Shown: one piece after another, positions 51,294-57,256 of the stretch
Layout of the letters: every line of letters starts with the position of its first letter
Position numbering within the stretch: the stretch's first letter is position 1
From: Streptomyces eurocidicus
GTDB taxonomy: Bacteria > Actinomycetota > Actinomycetes > Streptomycetales > Streptomycetaceae
Reading direction: 5' to 3'
Length of the DNA stretch: 64,000 nt
NCBI RefSeq assembly: GCF_002891295.1
Contig: NZ_LGUI01000011.1
Location: 186,001 to 250,000, forward strand
The notes under the pieces: generated by a model
Database searches by the model: none
Told to the model about the DNA's origin: nothing
The model's input: the letters and a program-made list of their open reading frames with translations, nothing else
Program-made: the position numbers and the translations under genes

Positions 51294-53189
51294 ATGACTC
51301 AGAGCAGCAGCGAGAAGAGAACCCCCCTCTGCATCGCCCCCTTCGTCTCGCTGGCGACCTGGGCCGACGGCGAGACGGTCATCTGCTGTGAGGACAAGGG
51401 GCCGACGGCCGGTCGCCTCGGGCACGTCGGCGACGTCTCCGAGCTGGTCAACAGCGAGAAGATGCGCTCCGCCCGCAAGCAGTTCATGCGCGGCGAGGTG
51501 CCGCCGGGCTGCCGGGCGTGTCTCGGTGAGGCGGCGCACCAGCCGACCGTTCACAACTACTACCAGGAAAGCTTCCGCTGGGAGGACGTCGCGGGGGCCT
51601 ATGACGAGATGACGGGCAGGGTCGGCGAGACGCGGTATCTGCTGATCGCCCTCAGCAACCTCTGCACGTACAGCTGCCGGATGTGTTTCGACAAGCTCAG
51701 CACCCGGCTGAATTCGGACCGGCACCGGATGCTGGGCGTGGAGCCGATCGGATACCGGCGCAACGACATCGACAAGGTCATCGACTTCATCCGGGCGAAC
51801 CCGATCGAGATCATCACGTTCCACGGCGGCAACCCCATCAACGAGCCCCGGTTCATGGACGTGCTGAACGCGCTGCCGAGCGAGGCGACCGTGGAGATCA
51901 TCTCGAACGGCTCCACGATGGTCTCGGGGAAGACGGACATCCGCCCGCACCTGGCCCGCTTCGAGCGGGTGCATTTCAACATCAGCCTGGACGGCACGCG
52001 GCGGACGACCGAATACGTGCGCGTACACAGCGACTTCGACGCGGTGTACCGCCACTTCACCGAGGTCAAGGCGCTACCCAACGCGACCGTCAATCTGCAC
52101 AACACGATCACGAACCTCAACCTGTTCGACCTGCCGTCGTACTACACCATGGTCATGTCGGGGCAGTTCGCCGAGGCCGACTCGCTCTCCAGCTACATCG
52201 CCACGCAGCCGGCCGTCCACCGCGTCTCCACTCTCCCGCCGGAGCTCAGGCGGGAGGCCCGCGACCGCATAGAAGACCTCCTGTGCGCGCTGGGCGACGA
52301 GGACGGGCCTCCGCCGACGGACGCGTTCGGCGTCAAGGCGACCAGGGTGCGGGCGTACGCGCGGAACGTCCTCCGCTGGATCGACTCGGTTCCCTATTCC
52401 CCGCGTCTCTTCACCGAGTTCCTGGAACTGACCCGGAAAACGGATGCCTTCTACGGGTTCGAGCCACTGCCGGAGTACAGCCGCTACCTCGCCTCGGGCG
52501 CGCCCGGCTCCTCGGAACCGGACCGGTCCCGGGCGGCCACGCCCTCACCCATTCCCCGGCTTGTCGCTCCCGGTGCGGGAGCGGCGAAGGGAGTCGTCGT
52601 GTCGCACATCGCCCCCGAGCCCGTCGAAGACCCCGCCGCCCTCGCGGGCCCCTGCCCGTACACGGGTGAGCGCGCGTTCCAGGTATCCGAGTGCATTTTC
52701 CAGTGGACCGCCGCCTACCGGCAGAACTGCACGGCGGTCACGGTACGGATCCAGCTCAACCCGGACTCGAACGTCACCGCTGCCGAGATCGCGACGCTGC
52801 GAACGACGTGGGAGAACGGCATCGAGAACAAGTGGAACCAGAACTTCATCTGCACCGGGCCCTACGGCAGTTCCATCATCACCTTCGACGTGCAGTTCGT
52901 GACCTCCAGTCCGCACCACGTCGTCCGGGTACGCCGAGGACCCGCCCGGAGCAATATGACGCTGTGGGACACGTCCGACTCCGGCGACGACATCGCGCAC
53001 GAGTTCGGCCACATGCTCGGCAATCCGGACGAGTACGTCGACGCCTCGTGCCCGAGCCGTAACCCCGTCAACACCGGGACGGTCATGGACGTCGTCGCCG
53101 GACCGGCGGTGCAGCGCCACGTCAACCGGATCTGTGTCTCGGCGCCGCTCGCGCCCGAGGTCTTCTCGATCGGCCTGGACCTCATCTAG
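51294..53189 (+). CDS. Twitch/radical SAM protein fused to a metallopeptidase domain
   Basis: A 631-residue protein in one frame. Residues 10-80 form an N-terminal twitch-type cluster domain (PLCIAPFVSLATWADG, C13, C31, C32, C73, C76). The radical SAM core follows with C124, C128 and C131 (CTYSCRMC, CxxxCxxC) and TFHGGNPINEP. A linker rich in Pro/Ala/Ser/Gly (about 400-440) leads to a C-terminal domain with HEFGHMLGNPDEY (569-581), a HExxHxxGxxD zinc motif like the Streptomyces protease snapalysin, and a possible Met-turn GTVMDVV. It probably modifies a peptide or sugar by radical chemistry and cuts a protein. Start has GGGGGCCGC upstream. The fusion is unusual, and the substrate is unknown. 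Confidence 0.82.
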   Translation: MTQSSSEKRTPLCIAPFVSLATWADGETVICCEDKGPTAGRLGHVGDVSELVNSEKMRSARKQFMRGEVPPGCRACLGEAAHQPTVHNYYQESFRWEDVAGAYDEMTGRVGETRYLLIALSNLCTYSCRMCFDKLSTRLNSDRHRMLGVEPIGYRRNDIDKVIDFIRANPIEIITFHGGNPINEPRFMDVLNALPSEATVEIISNGSTMVSGKTDIRPHLARFERVHFNISLDGTRRTTEYVRVHSDFDAVYRHFTEVKALPNATVNLHNTITNLNLFDLPSYYTMVMSGQFAEADSLSSYIATQPAVHRVSTLPPELRREARDRIEDLLCALGDEDGPPPTDAFGVKATRVRAYARNVLRWIDSVPYSPRLFTEFLELTRKTDAFYGFEPLPEYSRYLASGAPGSSEPDRSRAATPSPIPRLVAPGAGAAKGVVVSHIAPEPVEDPAALAGPCPYTGERAFQVSECIFQWTAAYRQNCTAVTVRIQLNPDSNVTAAEIATLRTTWENGIENKWNQNFICTGPYGSSIITFDVQFVTSSPHHVVRVRRGPARSNMTLWDTSDSGDDIAHEFGHMLGNPDEYVDASCPSRNPVNTGTVMDVVAGPAVQRHVNRICVSAPLAPEVFSIGLDLI

Positions 53190-53242: not shown

Positions 53243-53794
53243 ATGAGGGTAATCATCGAGTCATTCACCCGTCCCGACATCGCGCGTATGAAGACCGCGG
53301 TCGCACGGCTGGCCGACGGGCCGGCGGAGGCCGCCGACGACGTGACGATCGAGCTGTACGCGTTCGGCGGCTGCCCGGGACAGCGGGTCGAGTTCCGGGC
53401 CTCCATCCCCTCGCGGGGCGAGGCCGAGGTGTCCCATGCGGACGAGCTGCAGGGCATCGACGAACGGTTCTCGGCCGCGGTCCGCCCCGAGGAGCTGGCG
53501 GCCCTGGGGCGGCACCTGGACGTCGAGAACCTGATGGACCTCCCGCCGAACGCGGACGAGAGGTACGTACCGGGCTCGCTCGTCGGGTCGGTGACCATCA
53601 CGGCGGGGAACGCCCGGATCACCCTGCGGTTCCCCCTGGAGGACGAGGATCCCCCGGAGGGCGAGGAGACGGCGATGAGGATCGATCCCGGGCCGATCCC
53701 GTTCGTGCTGCGGGCCTCGATGGCGCCCCCGAGCGTCCGCCCGGCCCTCGCCCAGCTGGCGGCGGTCGTCAACCGGCTCACCGGCCGCTCGTAG
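53243..53794 (+). CDS. Unrecognised 183-residue protein of the radical SAM cluster
   Basis: Begins MRVIIESFTRPDIARMKTAVARLADG and contains a central segment FGGCPGQRVEFRASIPSRGEAEVSHADE and LVGSVTITAGNARITLRFPLEDE, with a predicted alpha/beta or beta-rich fold, one Cys and no signal peptide. GAGGACG lies seven bases before the ATG. It sits between the radical SAM-protease gene and two glycosyltransferase-like genes with short gaps, so it is probably part of the same operon. It could be a partner, carrier or substrate. No family recognised. Confidence 0.75.
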   Translation: MRVIIESFTRPDIARMKTAVARLADGPAEAADDVTIELYAFGGCPGQRVEFRASIPSRGEAEVSHADELQGIDERFSAAVRPEELAALGRHLDVENLMDLPPNADERYVPGSLVGSVTITAGNARITLRFPLEDEDPPEGEETAMRIDPGPIPFVLRASMAPPSVRPALAQLAAVVNRLTGRS

Positions 53795-53806: not shown

Positions 53807-54709
53807 ATGCAGGCCATCCACGTCAACTCGACCCTGCCGTCCGTGCCGTACCTGGGGCGGGCGAAGGGCCCCGACGGCTATCGGGTGGAGGACTTCGAAC
53901 TCCTCACGACCGTCCTCTCGGCGGCCGCCTGGCGCCGTTTCAACGGCCCGGTCAAGCTGTACACCGACCACGTCGGGGAGGCGTACTACCGGCGGCTGGG
54001 CATGACGGAGCTGTGGGACGGCGGCATCGACACGGAGGTGCTGGAGTCGCTGCCCTCCGCCATCAGCCACGACGTGTTCTGGACCGCCGGCCGCGTCGCG
54101 GCCCTCCAGGCGGAGACGGCGCCCTTCGTCTCGCTGGACACGGACCTCGTCGTCTGGGGGCCCGTCGACGCCCTGATCACCTCGGATTTCATGGCACTGC
54201 ACTCGGAGCCCCTGCACCACGGTGTGTACAAGCCCCGAGGCGAGCTGAGCACACCCTCCGGTTACGTCTGGGAGGAGTGGGACTGGGACGCGCTCCCCTG
54301 CAACGCCTCGCTGACGTACTACGCGGAGGACCGGCTCACCAAGATGTTCCACGCCAAGGCGATGGAATTCATCCTGGAGAACCCGATCCGGCGGGAGGCC
54401 GAGGCCCGCCTGCCCGTCCACGACGTGTTCGTCGCCCAGCGGCTGCTGCCGATGTGCGCGCTGAGACTGGGGGTGCGACCGGCGTACTTCCTCGACTGGC
54501 CCCGGCCCGAGCGCAACAGCGAGACGATGACCGGCGGTGGGAGGAACCGGCTGGTCACCCATGTCTGGGCCTACAAGAGCGCGCTCAAGAGCGACCCGGA
54601 CGCCCGGGAATCGTTCTGCAGGCGGTGCGTGGCCCGGATCCGTACCGACTACCCCGAGCTCGTGGGAATGCTGCGGCACATTCCCAGCGTCCGGCGGTAT
54701 CTGTCGTGA
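53807..54709 (+). CDS. GT-A-like glycosyltransferase-type protein (first paralogue; DUF6734-like)
   Basis: A 300-residue protein. N-terminal AIHVNSTLPSVPYL, then FELLTTVLSAAAWRRFNGPVKLYTD and, near residues 105-115, FVSLDTDLVVWGPVD, a DxD-type metal/nucleotide-sugar motif of GT-A fold enzymes. The later half has HDVFVAQRLLPMCA and HVWAYKSALK. It aligns along its length with the next protein (IDTEVLES versus VDAELLDT, DVFW shared). I associate the pair with DUF6734, but the family is poorly characterised. Transfer of a sugar to a cluster product is inferred. Confidence 0.75.
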   Translation: MQAIHVNSTLPSVPYLGRAKGPDGYRVEDFELLTTVLSAAAWRRFNGPVKLYTDHVGEAYYRRLGMTELWDGGIDTEVLESLPSAISHDVFWTAGRVAALQAETAPFVSLDTDLVVWGPVDALITSDFMALHSEPLHHGVYKPRGELSTPSGYVWEEWDWDALPCNASLTYYAEDRLTKMFHAKAMEFILENPIRREAEARLPVHDVFVAQRLLPMCALRLGVRPAYFLDWPRPERNSETMTGGGRNRLVTHVWAYKSALKSDPDARESFCRRCVARIRTDYPELVGMLRHIPSVRRYLS

Positions 54710-54763: not shown

Positions 54764-55678
54764 GTGAAGGCGATCCACGTCGTCTCCACCCGGCCGGCCA
54801 CGAACTACTACGTCTCGCGAGCCGGGGACTCCCCTTACCGGCAGGAGGACTTCGAGATCCTCACCACGGTCCTGTCGGCTCTCGAATGGCGCCGGCACAA
54901 CGGGGTGATCCGGCTCTACACGGATCCCCCGGGCCGGGAGTTCTACGACCGGCTCGGGCTCCTGGGCCTCTGGGACGGCGGGGTCGACGCCGAGCTCCTG
55001 GACACGGCGTCCCGGACGATCAACTGCGACGTCTTCTGGTCCTTCGGGAAGATCGTGGCCCTGCGGCGGGAAGAGGCGCCGTGCTGCGTCATGGACGTCG
55101 ACCTCATCGTCTGGGAGGACATCCGGCGGCTCGTCGACGCGGAAGTGATGAGCCTGCACGAGGAGTCACTCGCGTTCCCCGCCTACCTCGGCCGCGACCG
55201 CCTCGTCGCACCACCCGGATTCGACTGGAGCGGCCTGGACTGGTCGGCCACCCCGTGCAGCGCCGCGCTGCTCCTCTTCACCGAGGACGCGTTCAAGGAC
55301 GCGTACGCCGACCGGGCGCTGTCGTTCATGGCGGGCAACCCGGTCCGGTCGGAGCCCGACGGGGCGCTGCCCGCGCACCCGGTCTTCGCCGAGCAGCGGC
55401 TGCTGCCCATGTGCGCGAAGGCGAGCGGCGTACGCATCGGTTCGTTCCTGCGGGACTGCACGGGTGCCGAGCTGTGGTCCGGGCGGCGGAACACAGCGTT
55501 CACCCACCTGTGGAACGCGAAGACGCTTCTGCACCACGACCCGGGGAAGCGCGGGGAACTCTGCGCGAGGTACGCCCGCCGGATCCGGCGGGACCACCCG
55601 GAATTCGCGGAGGTGCTCGCGGGGTCCGAGCTCCTCCGGGAACACTTCCGGACGGCGGACGGGCTGCCGCACGCGTAG
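54764..55678 (+). CDS. GT-A-like glycosyltransferase-type protein (second paralogue; DUF6734-like)
   Basis: A 304-residue protein, clearly homologous to the preceding one (AIHVVSTRP, RQEDFEILTTVLSALEWRRHNG, DVDLIVW with a DxD). GTG at 54764 has GGGAGG ten bases upstream. Tandem duplication with divergence suggests the two act on different acceptors or form a heteromer. HPVFAEQRLLPMCAKASGVRIG parallels the first protein. It ends the plus-strand cluster; a repeat region and the Thr leader follow. Confidence 0.75.
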   Translation: MKAIHVVSTRPATNYYVSRAGDSPYRQEDFEILTTVLSALEWRRHNGVIRLYTDPPGREFYDRLGLLGLWDGGVDAELLDTASRTINCDVFWSFGKIVALRREEAPCCVMDVDLIVWEDIRRLVDAEVMSLHEESLAFPAYLGRDRLVAPPGFDWSGLDWSATPCSAALLLFTEDAFKDAYADRALSFMAGNPVRSEPDGALPAHPVFAEQRLLPMCAKASGVRIGSFLRDCTGAELWSGRRNTAFTHLWNAKTLLHHDPGKRGELCARYARRIRRDHPEFAEVLAGSELLREHFRTADGLPHA

Positions 55679-55848: not shown

Positions 55849-55935
55849 ATGAAGCGCGCCCGGATGGCCATGGCCATCGCCGTCCCCCTCGTCCTCGTCA
55901 TGACGACGACGCCGGAGAGTGTCCCGGCGCGCTGA
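55849..55935 (+). CDS. Threonine leader peptide of the thrS paralogue
   Basis: A 28-codon frame with a hydrophobic middle (MAMAIAVPLVLVM) and three consecutive Thr codons ACG ACG ACG (55903-55911), then PESVPAR and TGA. A 15-bp terminator hairpin starts 14 bases after the stop, and the next gene is a threonyl-tRNA synthetase. Stalling at the Thr codons when charged Thr-tRNA is low would be expected to prevent terminator formation. This is inferred from layout only. Confidence 0.68.
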   Translation: MKRARMAMAIAVPLVLVMTTTPESVPAR

Positions 55936-55949
55936 CAGATGTCCTAGTC

Positions 55950-55983
55950 CGAAAGCCCCGGGGCGAGTGCCCCGGGGCTTTCG
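55950..55983 (+). terminator. Terminator hairpin (candidate attenuator) before the thrS paralogue
   Basis: cgaaagccccggggc (55950-55964) and gccccggggctttcg (55969-55983) are exactly complementary with loop gagt. No separate U-tract follows. It lies between the Thr leader stop (55935) and the synthetase start (56027). Confidence 0.82.
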
Positions 55984-56026
55984 CGTGCTCCGGGCGCCTC
56001 GTCCCGGTGACCGCGAGGAGAACGCC

Positions 56027-57256
56027 ATGCACGACCACCGCAGACTCGGCCGTGAGCTCGGCCTGTTCGACACCGACCCGCTGATCGGGGCCGGGCTTCC
56101 CTACTGGCTGCCCGACGGGGCGGCCGTGCGGCACGCGCTGGAGGAGTACATCCGCGCGGCCGAGCGGAAGGCGGGCTACCGGCATGTGTACTCGCCCGTG
56201 CTGGGCAAGCGCGAGCTGTACGAGATCTCGGGGCACTGGTCGCACTACAGCGACGACATGTTCCCGCCGATGGACCTCGGCGGCGAACAGGTGGTGCTGC
56301 GGCCGAGCCTGTGCCCGCACCACGCGCTGATCTACCGCTCCCGTTCGCGCAGCTACCGTGAACTGCCCCTGCGCATCGCCGAGCTGGGCGGCATGTACCG
56401 CTCCGAACTCTCGGGCGTGCTCGGCGGGCTCACCCGCGTACGGGCCATCCAGCTGAACGACGCGCACATCTTCTGCACCCTGGAGCAGGTCGCCGAGGAG
56501 GCGGCCGGCGCGCTGGAGATGATCCGGCGGGCGTACGAGGCGCTCGGGATCGTCCCGGCCCGCTACCGGCTCTCCCTCCCCGGCCCCGGCGGCAAGTACG
56601 TGGCGGCACCGGAGCTGTGGGAGCGGTCGACCGCGCTGCTCACCGATGTCCTGGACCGCTCCGGGCTGCCGTACGAGGCCGCCGAGGGGGAGGCCGCGTT
56701 CTACGGGCCCAAGATCGACGTGCAGGTCGCCGACGGGGCGGGGCGGGAGTCCACCCTGTCGACCGTCCAGGTCGACTTCCACCAGCCCGAGCGGTTCGAC
56801 CTGCGCTACGTCGGCGCGGACGGCGCGAAGCACCGGCCGGTGATGGTCCACCGCAGCGTCATCGGCAGCGTGGAACGGGCCGTCGCCCACCTCGTGGAAC
56901 AGCACGGCGGCGCGTTCCCCGCCTGGCTGGCCCCCACCCAACTGGCCGTCCTGCCGGTCTCCGAGGCACAGGTGCCGGAGGCGGAGGCCGTCGTACGGCG
57001 GTGCGTGGAACTGGGCCTACGGGCGGAGGTGGCCGGTCCGGAACACGGCGGCCTGGGCGCGCGCGTCCGCCGGGCGCGGCTGGTCCCGTACCAGGCCGTG
57101 ATCGGCGCGAAGGAGGCCGCCGAGGGCCTTCTCGCCGTACGGCTGCGCGACGGCCGCCGCCTCGCGCCACGGCCCGCCGAGGAGTTCCTCGCGGCGGTCG
57201 GCGCGCTCGTCGGGGCCCACAGCACCGCGCTGTGGGACGGGGACGACCGCTCGTAG
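56027..57256 (+). CDS. Short threonyl-tRNA synthetase (no TGS or editing domain)
   Basis: A 409-residue class II synthetase with catalytic core and anticodon-binding domain only; the usual enzyme is about 640-660 residues with N-terminal TGS and editing domains. The zinc ligands are kept: C96 in SLCPHH, His in NDAHIFC and His in HRSVIGS. Motif 2 (GGMYRSELSGVLGGLTRVRAIQL) and motif 3 (GSVERAVAHLVE) are present. GAGGAG is six bases before ATG. It is probably a second ThrRS in addition to a full-length housekeeping one elsewhere. Such paralogues can replace ThrRS under inhibitor stress. Regulated by the Thr leader and terminator upstream. Confidence 0.88.
   Translation: MHDHRRLGRELGLFDTDPLIGAGLPYWLPDGAAVRHALEEYIRAAERKAGYRHVYSPVLGKRELYEISGHWSHYSDDMFPPMDLGGEQVVLRPSLCPHHALIYRSRSRSYRELPLRIAELGGMYRSELSGVLGGLTRVRAIQLNDAHIFCTLEQVAEEAAGALEMIRRAYEALGIVPARYRLSLPGPGGKYVAAPELWERSTALLTDVLDRSGLPYEAAEGEAAFYGPKIDVQVADGAGRESTLSTVQVDFHQPERFDLRYVGADGAKHRPVMVHRSVIGSVERAVAHLVEQHGGAFPAWLAPTQLAVLPVSEAQVPEAEAVVRRCVELGLRAEVAGPEHGGLGARVRRARLVPYQAVIGAKEAAEGLLAVRLRDGRRLAPRPAEEFLAAVGALVGAHSTALWDGDDRS

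What the first reader, a model, noticed from the sequence alone, without database searches (positions are those of the whole stretch)
51294..53189. Radical SAM/twitch protein fused to a HExxHxxGxxD metallopeptidase
One uninterrupted frame joins an N-terminal cysteine-rich twitch module, a CxxxCxxC radical SAM core (C124, C128, C131) and a zinc-protease motif HEFGH with Asp579 as possible third ligand, as in snapalysin. I know of no described family with this fusion. It suggests one polypeptide that performs a radical modification and a proteolytic step, for example maturation of a ribosomal peptide or a toxin.
Basis: partly seen in the sequence, partly recalled or inferred. Interest (0 to 1): 0.82.

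Follow-up and report, generated by a model that had tools for sequence, protein, structure and literature searches.

The report
Radical enzyme fused to effector-type protease
A Streptomyces-like bacterium and three Streptomyces relatives carry a small, patchily distributed gene cassette in which a radical-chemistry enzyme is joined in one protein to a zinc protease whose own relatives look like injected or secreted effectors, next to a dedicated partner protein and two sugar-transferase-like genes; no description of this combination was found and its product is unknown.

Summary
ORF 51294-53189 (631 aa) is one uninterrupted frame: an N-terminal-twitch radical SAM enzyme (NCBIfam NF033640, above cut-off), a variable S/T/P/G/A-rich linker, and a metzincin-like zinc peptidase (HEFGHMLGNPDEY plus a GTVMD candidate Met-turn; best solved relative snapalysin). 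Three Streptomyces carry the same fusion in frame, 75-78% identical, with both domains under constraint and the linker free to change. So it is not an assembly or split-gene error. It is the first gene of a four-gene cassette (fusion, p183, two DUF6734 proteins); 2.5-kb flanks show no match between strains beyond short upstream DNA.

New here: peptidase-domain relatives occur beside T6SS-type genes, fused to an eCIS-core domain, inside giant EndoU-type proteins, fused to a lectin, or beside a fibre-like gene. p183 belongs to a partner family that, in each place where I found it, is next to or fused with this peptidase, so it is probably its inhibitor or immunity protein.

RiPP maturation is possible, but I found no precursor peptide. 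My best reading: a mobile maturation or conflict cassette in which a partner-restrained protease works in cis with a radical SAM enzyme. Substrate unknown. New variant of a known kind; interest about 0.6.

The parts
51294..53189 (+). rSAM-MP: twitch radical SAM enzyme fused to a metzincin-like zinc peptidase, 631 aa
51330..51521 (+). N-terminal SPASM/twitch-like module, residues 13-76, with C13, C31, C32, C73, C76 conserved in 4 of 4 fused proteins
   Evidence: (SPASM 21.2 bits, cut-off 21.5)
51663..51686 (+). CxxxCxxC of the radical SAM core (C124, C128, C131)
   Evidence: core model resembles EpeE/PqqE
52482..52580 (+). S/T/P/G/A-rich interdomain linker, residues 397-429, with indels between strains
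52656..53186 (+). zinc peptidase domain (MP), residues 455-631
52998..53030 (+). HEFGHMLGNPD zinc motif (H569-D579)
53076..53090 (+). GTVMD, candidate Met-turn (M598)
   Evidence: the name Met-turn is recalled knowledge of metzincins
53243..53794 (+). p183: partner protein of the peptidase (putative inhibitor/immunity protein)
53807..54709 (+). DUF6734 protein GTa, probable glycosyltransferase (inferred)
54764..55678 (+). DUF6734 protein GTb, paralogue of GTa, last gene of the conserved cassette

Best explanation
A four-gene cassette, found in four Streptomyces-type genomes with no similarity detected between their flanking genes. Its first gene encodes one cytosolic polypeptide with a twitch-type radical SAM enzyme and, after a flexible linker, a snapalysin/M6-like metzincin peptidase from a family of effector-type proteases. 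Shown by sequence: the fusion, conserved catalytic motifs, constraint on both halves, the gene order, and the linkage of p183-type partners with this peptidase. Inferred: (1) p183 binds the peptidase and keeps it inactive in the producing cell; (2) the rSAM domain and the two DUF6734 transferases modify a protein or peptide substrate; (3) the peptidase, tethered to the rSAM domain, cleaves that substrate (or itself at the linker) to release the finished product, used against competitors or phage. Steps 2-3 are the least certain, and the substrate is not identified.
For: In-frame fusion in 4 strains, with dN/dS well below 1 for the rSAM domain, below 1 for the peptidase and around 1 for the linker. 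Same four genes in order, gaps from -4 to 88 bp. In 2.5-kb flanks no blastn match between strains except 84 bp (L029/L030) and 326 bp (L030/L031) just upstream of the first gene. Partner profile: 3 of 346 genomes of the window's phylum match (one is the window's own; 9 candidates scored per genome) and in all 3 the match lies beside or is fused to the peptidase. Two further pairs, in genome G159 and a Paraburkholderia plasmid, were reached through the peptidase. The cis-fused partner in L078 is found at E 8e-11 by a profile built without it. Peptidase kin in effector-type settings. Metalloprotease plus inhibitor in one operon has a precedent in protealysin/emfourin (PMC9505478, passages read). 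rSAM core most like EpeE, PqqE and SkfB. N_Twi_rSAM followed by a GT8 gene in a Vibrio phage.
Against: No precursor gene seen beside the cassette. p183 has no detectable sequence relation to emfourin and its nearest known fold is Mago nashi, not a protease inhibitor. The full fusion model is poor (pLDDT 56.3, pTM 0.39) and its Foldseek list mixes rSAM proteins with unrelated folds. Six cysteines conserved in or just before the peptidase domain of all 4 fused proteins would fit an exported protein better than a cytosolic rSAM tether. HExxH does not prove a protease: a 2025 preprint (abstract start seen in the listing) reports alpha-ketoglutarate-dependent HEXXH enzymes in RiPP pathways. DUF6734 as a transferase is inference: the only PDB match at E up to 1 is an ATPase at 0.15. 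Only four instances are known.
Confidence: 0.42

Rival explanations
1. Conflict cassette in which the peptidase is the weapon: p183 is immunity, and the rSAM and GT parts arm, tag or export the protease (for instance O-glycosylating the S/T-rich linker or modifying the protease domain) rather than building a separate product.
For: Effector-type settings of peptidase kin; patchy occurrence, with a full-length match in 1 of 392 genomes of the window's genus, its own, and 3 of the 8 loci of the genome-contig scan; S/T share of the linker 18-34%; cis-fused lectin-peptidase-partner protein as sister.
Against: An enzyme with several Fe-S cysteine motifs is an unlikely secreted or injected cargo; no signal peptide seen by eye; the one eCIS_core hit of the same genome is on another contig.
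Confidence: 0.3
2. Bifunctional RiPP maturase: rSAM modifies a precursor peptide encoded elsewhere and the fused peptidase removes its leader.
For: SPASM/twitch rSAM fold neighbours are RiPP enzymes; metalloproteases do remove RiPP leaders, though the passages seen of the review PMC10885120 name no rSAM-protease fusion.
Against: No small ORF shared as a gene beside the cassette in four strains; this peptidase family is not among the leader peptidases named in the passages seen of that review; p183 remains unexplained unless it is the substrate.
Confidence: 0.2
3. The two halves share a polypeptide only for co-expression or localisation, and the rSAM and GT parts make a glycan or glycolipid unrelated to proteolysis.
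For: N_Twi_rSAM beside glycosyltransferases in a Vibrio phage and in two loci of the window's genus with other tailoring genes.
Against: The fusion persists in all four strains with the partner gene always next.
Confidence: 0.08

Closest known systems
NF033640 N_Twi_rSAM (twitch domain-containing radical SAM protein)
   Same: Residues 12-388 match over the curated cut-off; twitch and core cysteines present
   Different: The other relatives looked at carry no peptidase by eye: the Vibrio phage protein has 407 aa, and the two other hits over the cut-off in the window's genus lie in called frames of 517 and 508 aa
Snapalysin / small neutral protease (PDB 1c7k, 4hx3)
   Same: HExxHxxGxxD zinc motif; best PDB sequence relative of the peptidase profile
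   Different: Not a secreted stand-alone enzyme here; no match to NCBIfam NF033628 at E up to 1
M6 family peptidases (TIGR03296, PF05547)
   Same: Local match around the zinc motif
   Different: 21.9 of 110.8 bits and 15.2 of 22 bits, below cut-off
Protealysin-emfourin operon
   Same: Metalloprotease with its dedicated small protein in one operon; inhibitor proposed as immunity protein (PMC9505478, passages)
   Different: M4-type protease (recalled); partner unrelated in sequence to p183
Polymorphic-toxin metallopeptidases (Tox-MPTase1-5; PVC metallopeptidase)
   Same: Zinc peptidase as effector module attached to varied N-termini (PMC3482391, passages read)
   Different: The passages seen give HExxH or HExxHxxQ-E signatures, not HExxHxxGxxD, and no rSAM fusion

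Membership tests
N_Twi_rSAM (NF033640) | Whole-protein score over the curated cut-off of 170 bits | tested here: met
   181.8 bits, residues 12-388
N_Twi_rSAM (NF033640) | CxxxCxxC and N-terminal twitch cysteines conserved | tested here: met
   8 of 8 such cysteines conserved in 4 of 4 fused proteins
N_Twi_rSAM (NF033640) | Fe-S clusters and SAM cleavage | not testable with these tools
   needs purified protein
Snapalysin | HExxHxxGxxD zinc motif | tested here: met
Snapalysin | NF033628 profile over its cut-off (300 bits) | tested here: not met
   no match at E up to 1 for P0001; 15 bits for the Paraburkholderia relative
Peptidase family M6 | TIGR03296 or PF05547 over cut-off | tested here: not met
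   21.9 of 110.8 and 15.2 of 22 bits
Emfourin (PF20242), for p183 | Sequence relation to the family | tested here: not met
   no PF20242 match at E up to 1; hhalign E 0.17 and 0.01-0.12 with probability at most 4.1%
Emfourin (PF20242), for p183 | Fold | tested here: inconclusive
   best matches Mago nashi, Z 10.9, rmsd 3.5, 130 aligned; no emfourin row in the lists shown
Emfourin (PF20242), for p183 | Inhibits the metalloprotease of its own operon | not testable with these tools
   needs assay
RiPP biosynthetic cluster | Precursor peptide gene in the cluster | tested here: inconclusive
   none seen by eye among ORFs of 20 aa or more within 700 bp up- and 600 bp downstream in four loci; a frame ending at one place in L029, L030 and L031 differs between L030 and L031 at 4, 7 and 2 codon positions 1, 2, 3, unlike a gene; an unlinked precursor is not excluded
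DUF6734 (PF20508), for GTa and GTb | Gathering score 27 bits | tested here: met
   27.2 and 31.9 bits

The most novel reading that the evidence does not exclude
Radical SAM chemistry in cis with an effector-type protease: a mobile conflict cassette in which the rSAM domain (with two transferases) post-translationally edits the protease, its linker or its partner p183, so that proteolysis is switched on only after a radical modification. It would be, as far as I know, the first protease controlled by a tethered radical SAM enzyme.
Probability: 0.17. Interest if true: 0.87.

Novelty: new variant of a known kind. Interest (0 to 1): 0.6.

Why it matters
Each half is a recognisable kind of enzyme, but I found no description of the fusion, the four-gene cassette or the peptidase-partner pairing in the library searched. 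If the partner is an inhibitor, it defines a protease/inhibitor pair within a protease family spread over T6SS-, eCIS- and lectin-type settings. If the rSAM half acts on the protease or its substrate, it links radical modification and proteolysis in one chain, which is directly testable in ordinary laboratory strains.

Tried and rejected
Assembly or split-gene artefact: rejected, since in-frame fusions with a freely varying linker exist in four genomes. Emfourin membership of p183: suggested by gene order and a GG-containing first strand, not supported by sequence; the fold search gave Mago nashi, which I treat as a resemblance only. Precursor peptide: small ORFs up- and downstream compared by eye, none shared by the four loci. 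An open frame ending at one and the same place upstream occurs in L029 (38 aa), L030 (inside a 71-aa frame) and L031 (39 aa), not in the window; between L030 and L031 it differs at 4, 7 and 2 of 39 first, second and third codon positions, so I take it for conserved promoter DNA. Partner-like neighbours by eye at L092, L094, L095, L128 and L130 did not reach significance with the partner profile (L092 was in the alignments A4 and A7 used) and are not counted. Viral contigs: two scans, no relative. Anti-phage (PADLOC): only weak viperin matches through the shared rSAM core, 30.7 bits, and a 14.6-bit match of the Paraburkholderia partner. eCIS delivery within this genome: one eCIS_core hit on another contig, no link to the cassette. 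Of the 23 giant-frame loci, 16 show HExxHxxGxxD in the frame with fewest stops and 7 do not, and some of the 16 carry a different repeated HELTHQLG motif, so not all need be true relatives. Limits of the absence claims: one search scored 3 candidates per genome and one search finds close relatives only, by exact peptide patterns.

Full report
Naming. I call its genus Streptomyces and its phylum Actinomycetota by inference, because the nearest named relatives are Streptomyces; genomes with G handles are likewise named by inference.

Observation. The frame 51294-53189 on the + strand encodes 631 aa without a stop. It occurs once in the window's genome. Residues 12-388 match NCBIfam NF033640, a twitch radical SAM family, at 181.8 bits (cut-off 170). 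The Pfam matches for Radical_SAM, SPASM and Peptidase_M6 stay below gathering scores. The C-terminal 180 residues are a zinc peptidase domain: its profile finds snapalysin first among solved structures (E 5e-4). H569, E570, H573, G576, E580 and Y581 are invariant among 11 aligned proteins, with D579 and M598 at 90% or more. In the Acidobacteria relatives the third-ligand position is Glu, not Asp.

Is the fusion real? One pattern-based scan of one genome for each of 84,980 species returned 8 loci, three of them full-length relatives: S. albireticuli, S. lasiicapitis and S. flavofungini, best segments 75-78% identical. All three are uninterrupted. Between the four proteins, dN/dS is 0.18-0.45 for the rSAM part, 0.30-0.81 for the peptidase and 0.52-1.26 for residues 389-450, which carry whole-codon indels; 14 of 15 cysteines are conserved. 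In a sample of 392 genomes of the genus (3 candidates scored in each) 21 have some match, but the fusion is seen only in the window's own; one (G159) has the peptidase alone at 56% identity, three match in the rSAM core only, and 16 match inside very long frames of 1,388 to 11,250 aa.

The cassette. Downstream lie p183 and two DUF6734 paralogues, in the same order in all four strains, with gaps from -4 to 88 bp. The window's short ThrRS and DUF397 genes have no match within the 18-kb loci of the three relatives; its XRE gene has a weak one (24% identity) in L030, about 1.7 kb upstream of the fusion. Flanks of about 2.5 kb show no blastn match between strains except 84 bp (L029/L030) and 326 bp (L030/L031) just upstream of the first gene; parts of that stretch can be aligned to the window too. 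DUF6734 was found in 1 of 198 genomes of the phylum, the window's own. The cassette therefore looks horizontally acquired (inference).

The peptidase family. Relatives of the domain lie after VgrG-, DUF4123- and PAAR-type genes in Acidobacteria, between a ClpV-type ATPase and VgrG in an Aquabacterium MAG, at the C-terminus of an eCIS_core protein in Anaerolineales and of a similar protein by eye in genome G482, and within very long EndoU-annotated Streptomyces proteins. Others are fused to a beta-propeller lectin-like part (L078), beside a fibre-like gene (L037, L070, L079), or secreted-looking with a PEP-CTERM-like tail. VgrG, DUF4123, PAAR, ClpV and PEP-CTERM labels are mine, from reading the sequences; only eCIS_core, EndoU and the lectin were matched by profile, the lectin models below their cut-offs (77.3 of 200 and 72.3 of 400 bits). 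A tree of 17 rows puts the four fused domains together (92/91; 91% of bootstrap trees need one change) with the lectin fusion as sister (91/88). Neither fork reaches the program's star, only 3 of 14 inner branches do, and four rows have long branches. One origin of the fusion is the simplest reading.

The partner. p183 aligns with a 157-aa protein beside the stand-alone peptidase of G159 and a 164-aa protein beside the Paraburkholderia one, at 26% identity each. A profile of these six found matches in 3 of 346 genomes of the phylum: the window itself, G726 and G418; each lies beside or in the same polypeptide as the peptidase. The cis-fused case scores E 8e-11 with a profile that leaves it out. 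This constant pairing suggests that the partner acts on the peptidase; inhibition is inferred by analogy with protealysin and emfourin (PMC9505478, passages read). There is no detectable sequence relation to emfourin. The p183 model (pLDDT 82.7, pTM 0.82) matches the Mago nashi fold (Z 10.9, rmsd 3.5, 130 aligned, 12% identity), which tells nothing of function.

The radical SAM half. The full model is poor (pLDDT 56.3) and its Foldseek list is mixed, but its core region aligns to EpeE (Z 10.0), PqqE (9.4) and SkfB (8.9), known to me as SPASM/twitch-type maturases of peptides, closely followed by viperin (8.7) and QueE (8.2). In 3 of 246 genomes of the genus NF033640 matches over its cut-off, the window's own among them. 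The two others lie among genes that read as dioxygenases, methyltransferases and glycosyltransferases (labels by eye). A Vibrio phage carries a relative followed directly by a GT8 gene and further rSAM and GT-like genes. So a link of this rSAM type with sugar transfer recurs, but its chemistry is unknown.

Mechanism. Best reading: p183 restrains the peptidase in the producer; rSAM and transferases modify a substrate; the tethered peptidase releases or activates the product. The substrate may be an unlinked peptide, p183 itself or the linker of the fusion. Six conserved cysteines in and just before the peptidase domain hint that its ancestors worked outside the cytosol. No precursor gene was found beside the cassette, so the RiPP reading is a rival, not the conclusion.

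Novelty. Paper searches for the fusion, for this rSAM family by name and for DUF6734 showed no description (listings seen); a review of RiPP leader peptidases, passages only, names no such fusion (PMC10885120). The library is open-access only. I rate it a new variant: known enzyme kinds in a new covalent combination, in a conserved small operon.

Noticed in passing
window 55919-57256 +: A second, short threonyl-tRNA synthetase (445 aa, matching TIGR00418 from position 165) beside the cassette; a full-length one lies on contig C6. It has no match in the loci of the three relatives. It could be a resistance copy; not tested.
   Followed up: partly
L078 6153-8180 (-): One 675-aa protein joins a beta-propeller lectin-like part, the zinc peptidase and the p183-type partner in cis.
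   Followed up: yes
L072 5968-12704: Vibrio phage K566 carries four radical SAM genes interleaved with a GT8 gene and a weakly GT4-like gene.
   Followed up: partly
L012, L014, L015, L018, L019, L026: Very long frames in genomes of the window's genus carry VHELTHQLGLRDE-like zinc motifs, in five of these six loci twice within about 3 kb.
   Followed up: no
L037 8579-10522; L070 6369-7773; L079 411-2337: A glycine-rich fibre-like gene (the L070 copy has no Pfam match at E up to 0.1) accompanies the partner and stand-alone peptidase in G159, Paraburkholderia and G418.
   Followed up: partly
L093, L094, L095: Genomes of the Aquabacterium MAG's order encode secreted-looking versions of the peptidase with a PEP-CTERM-like tail (label from memory).
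   Followed up: no
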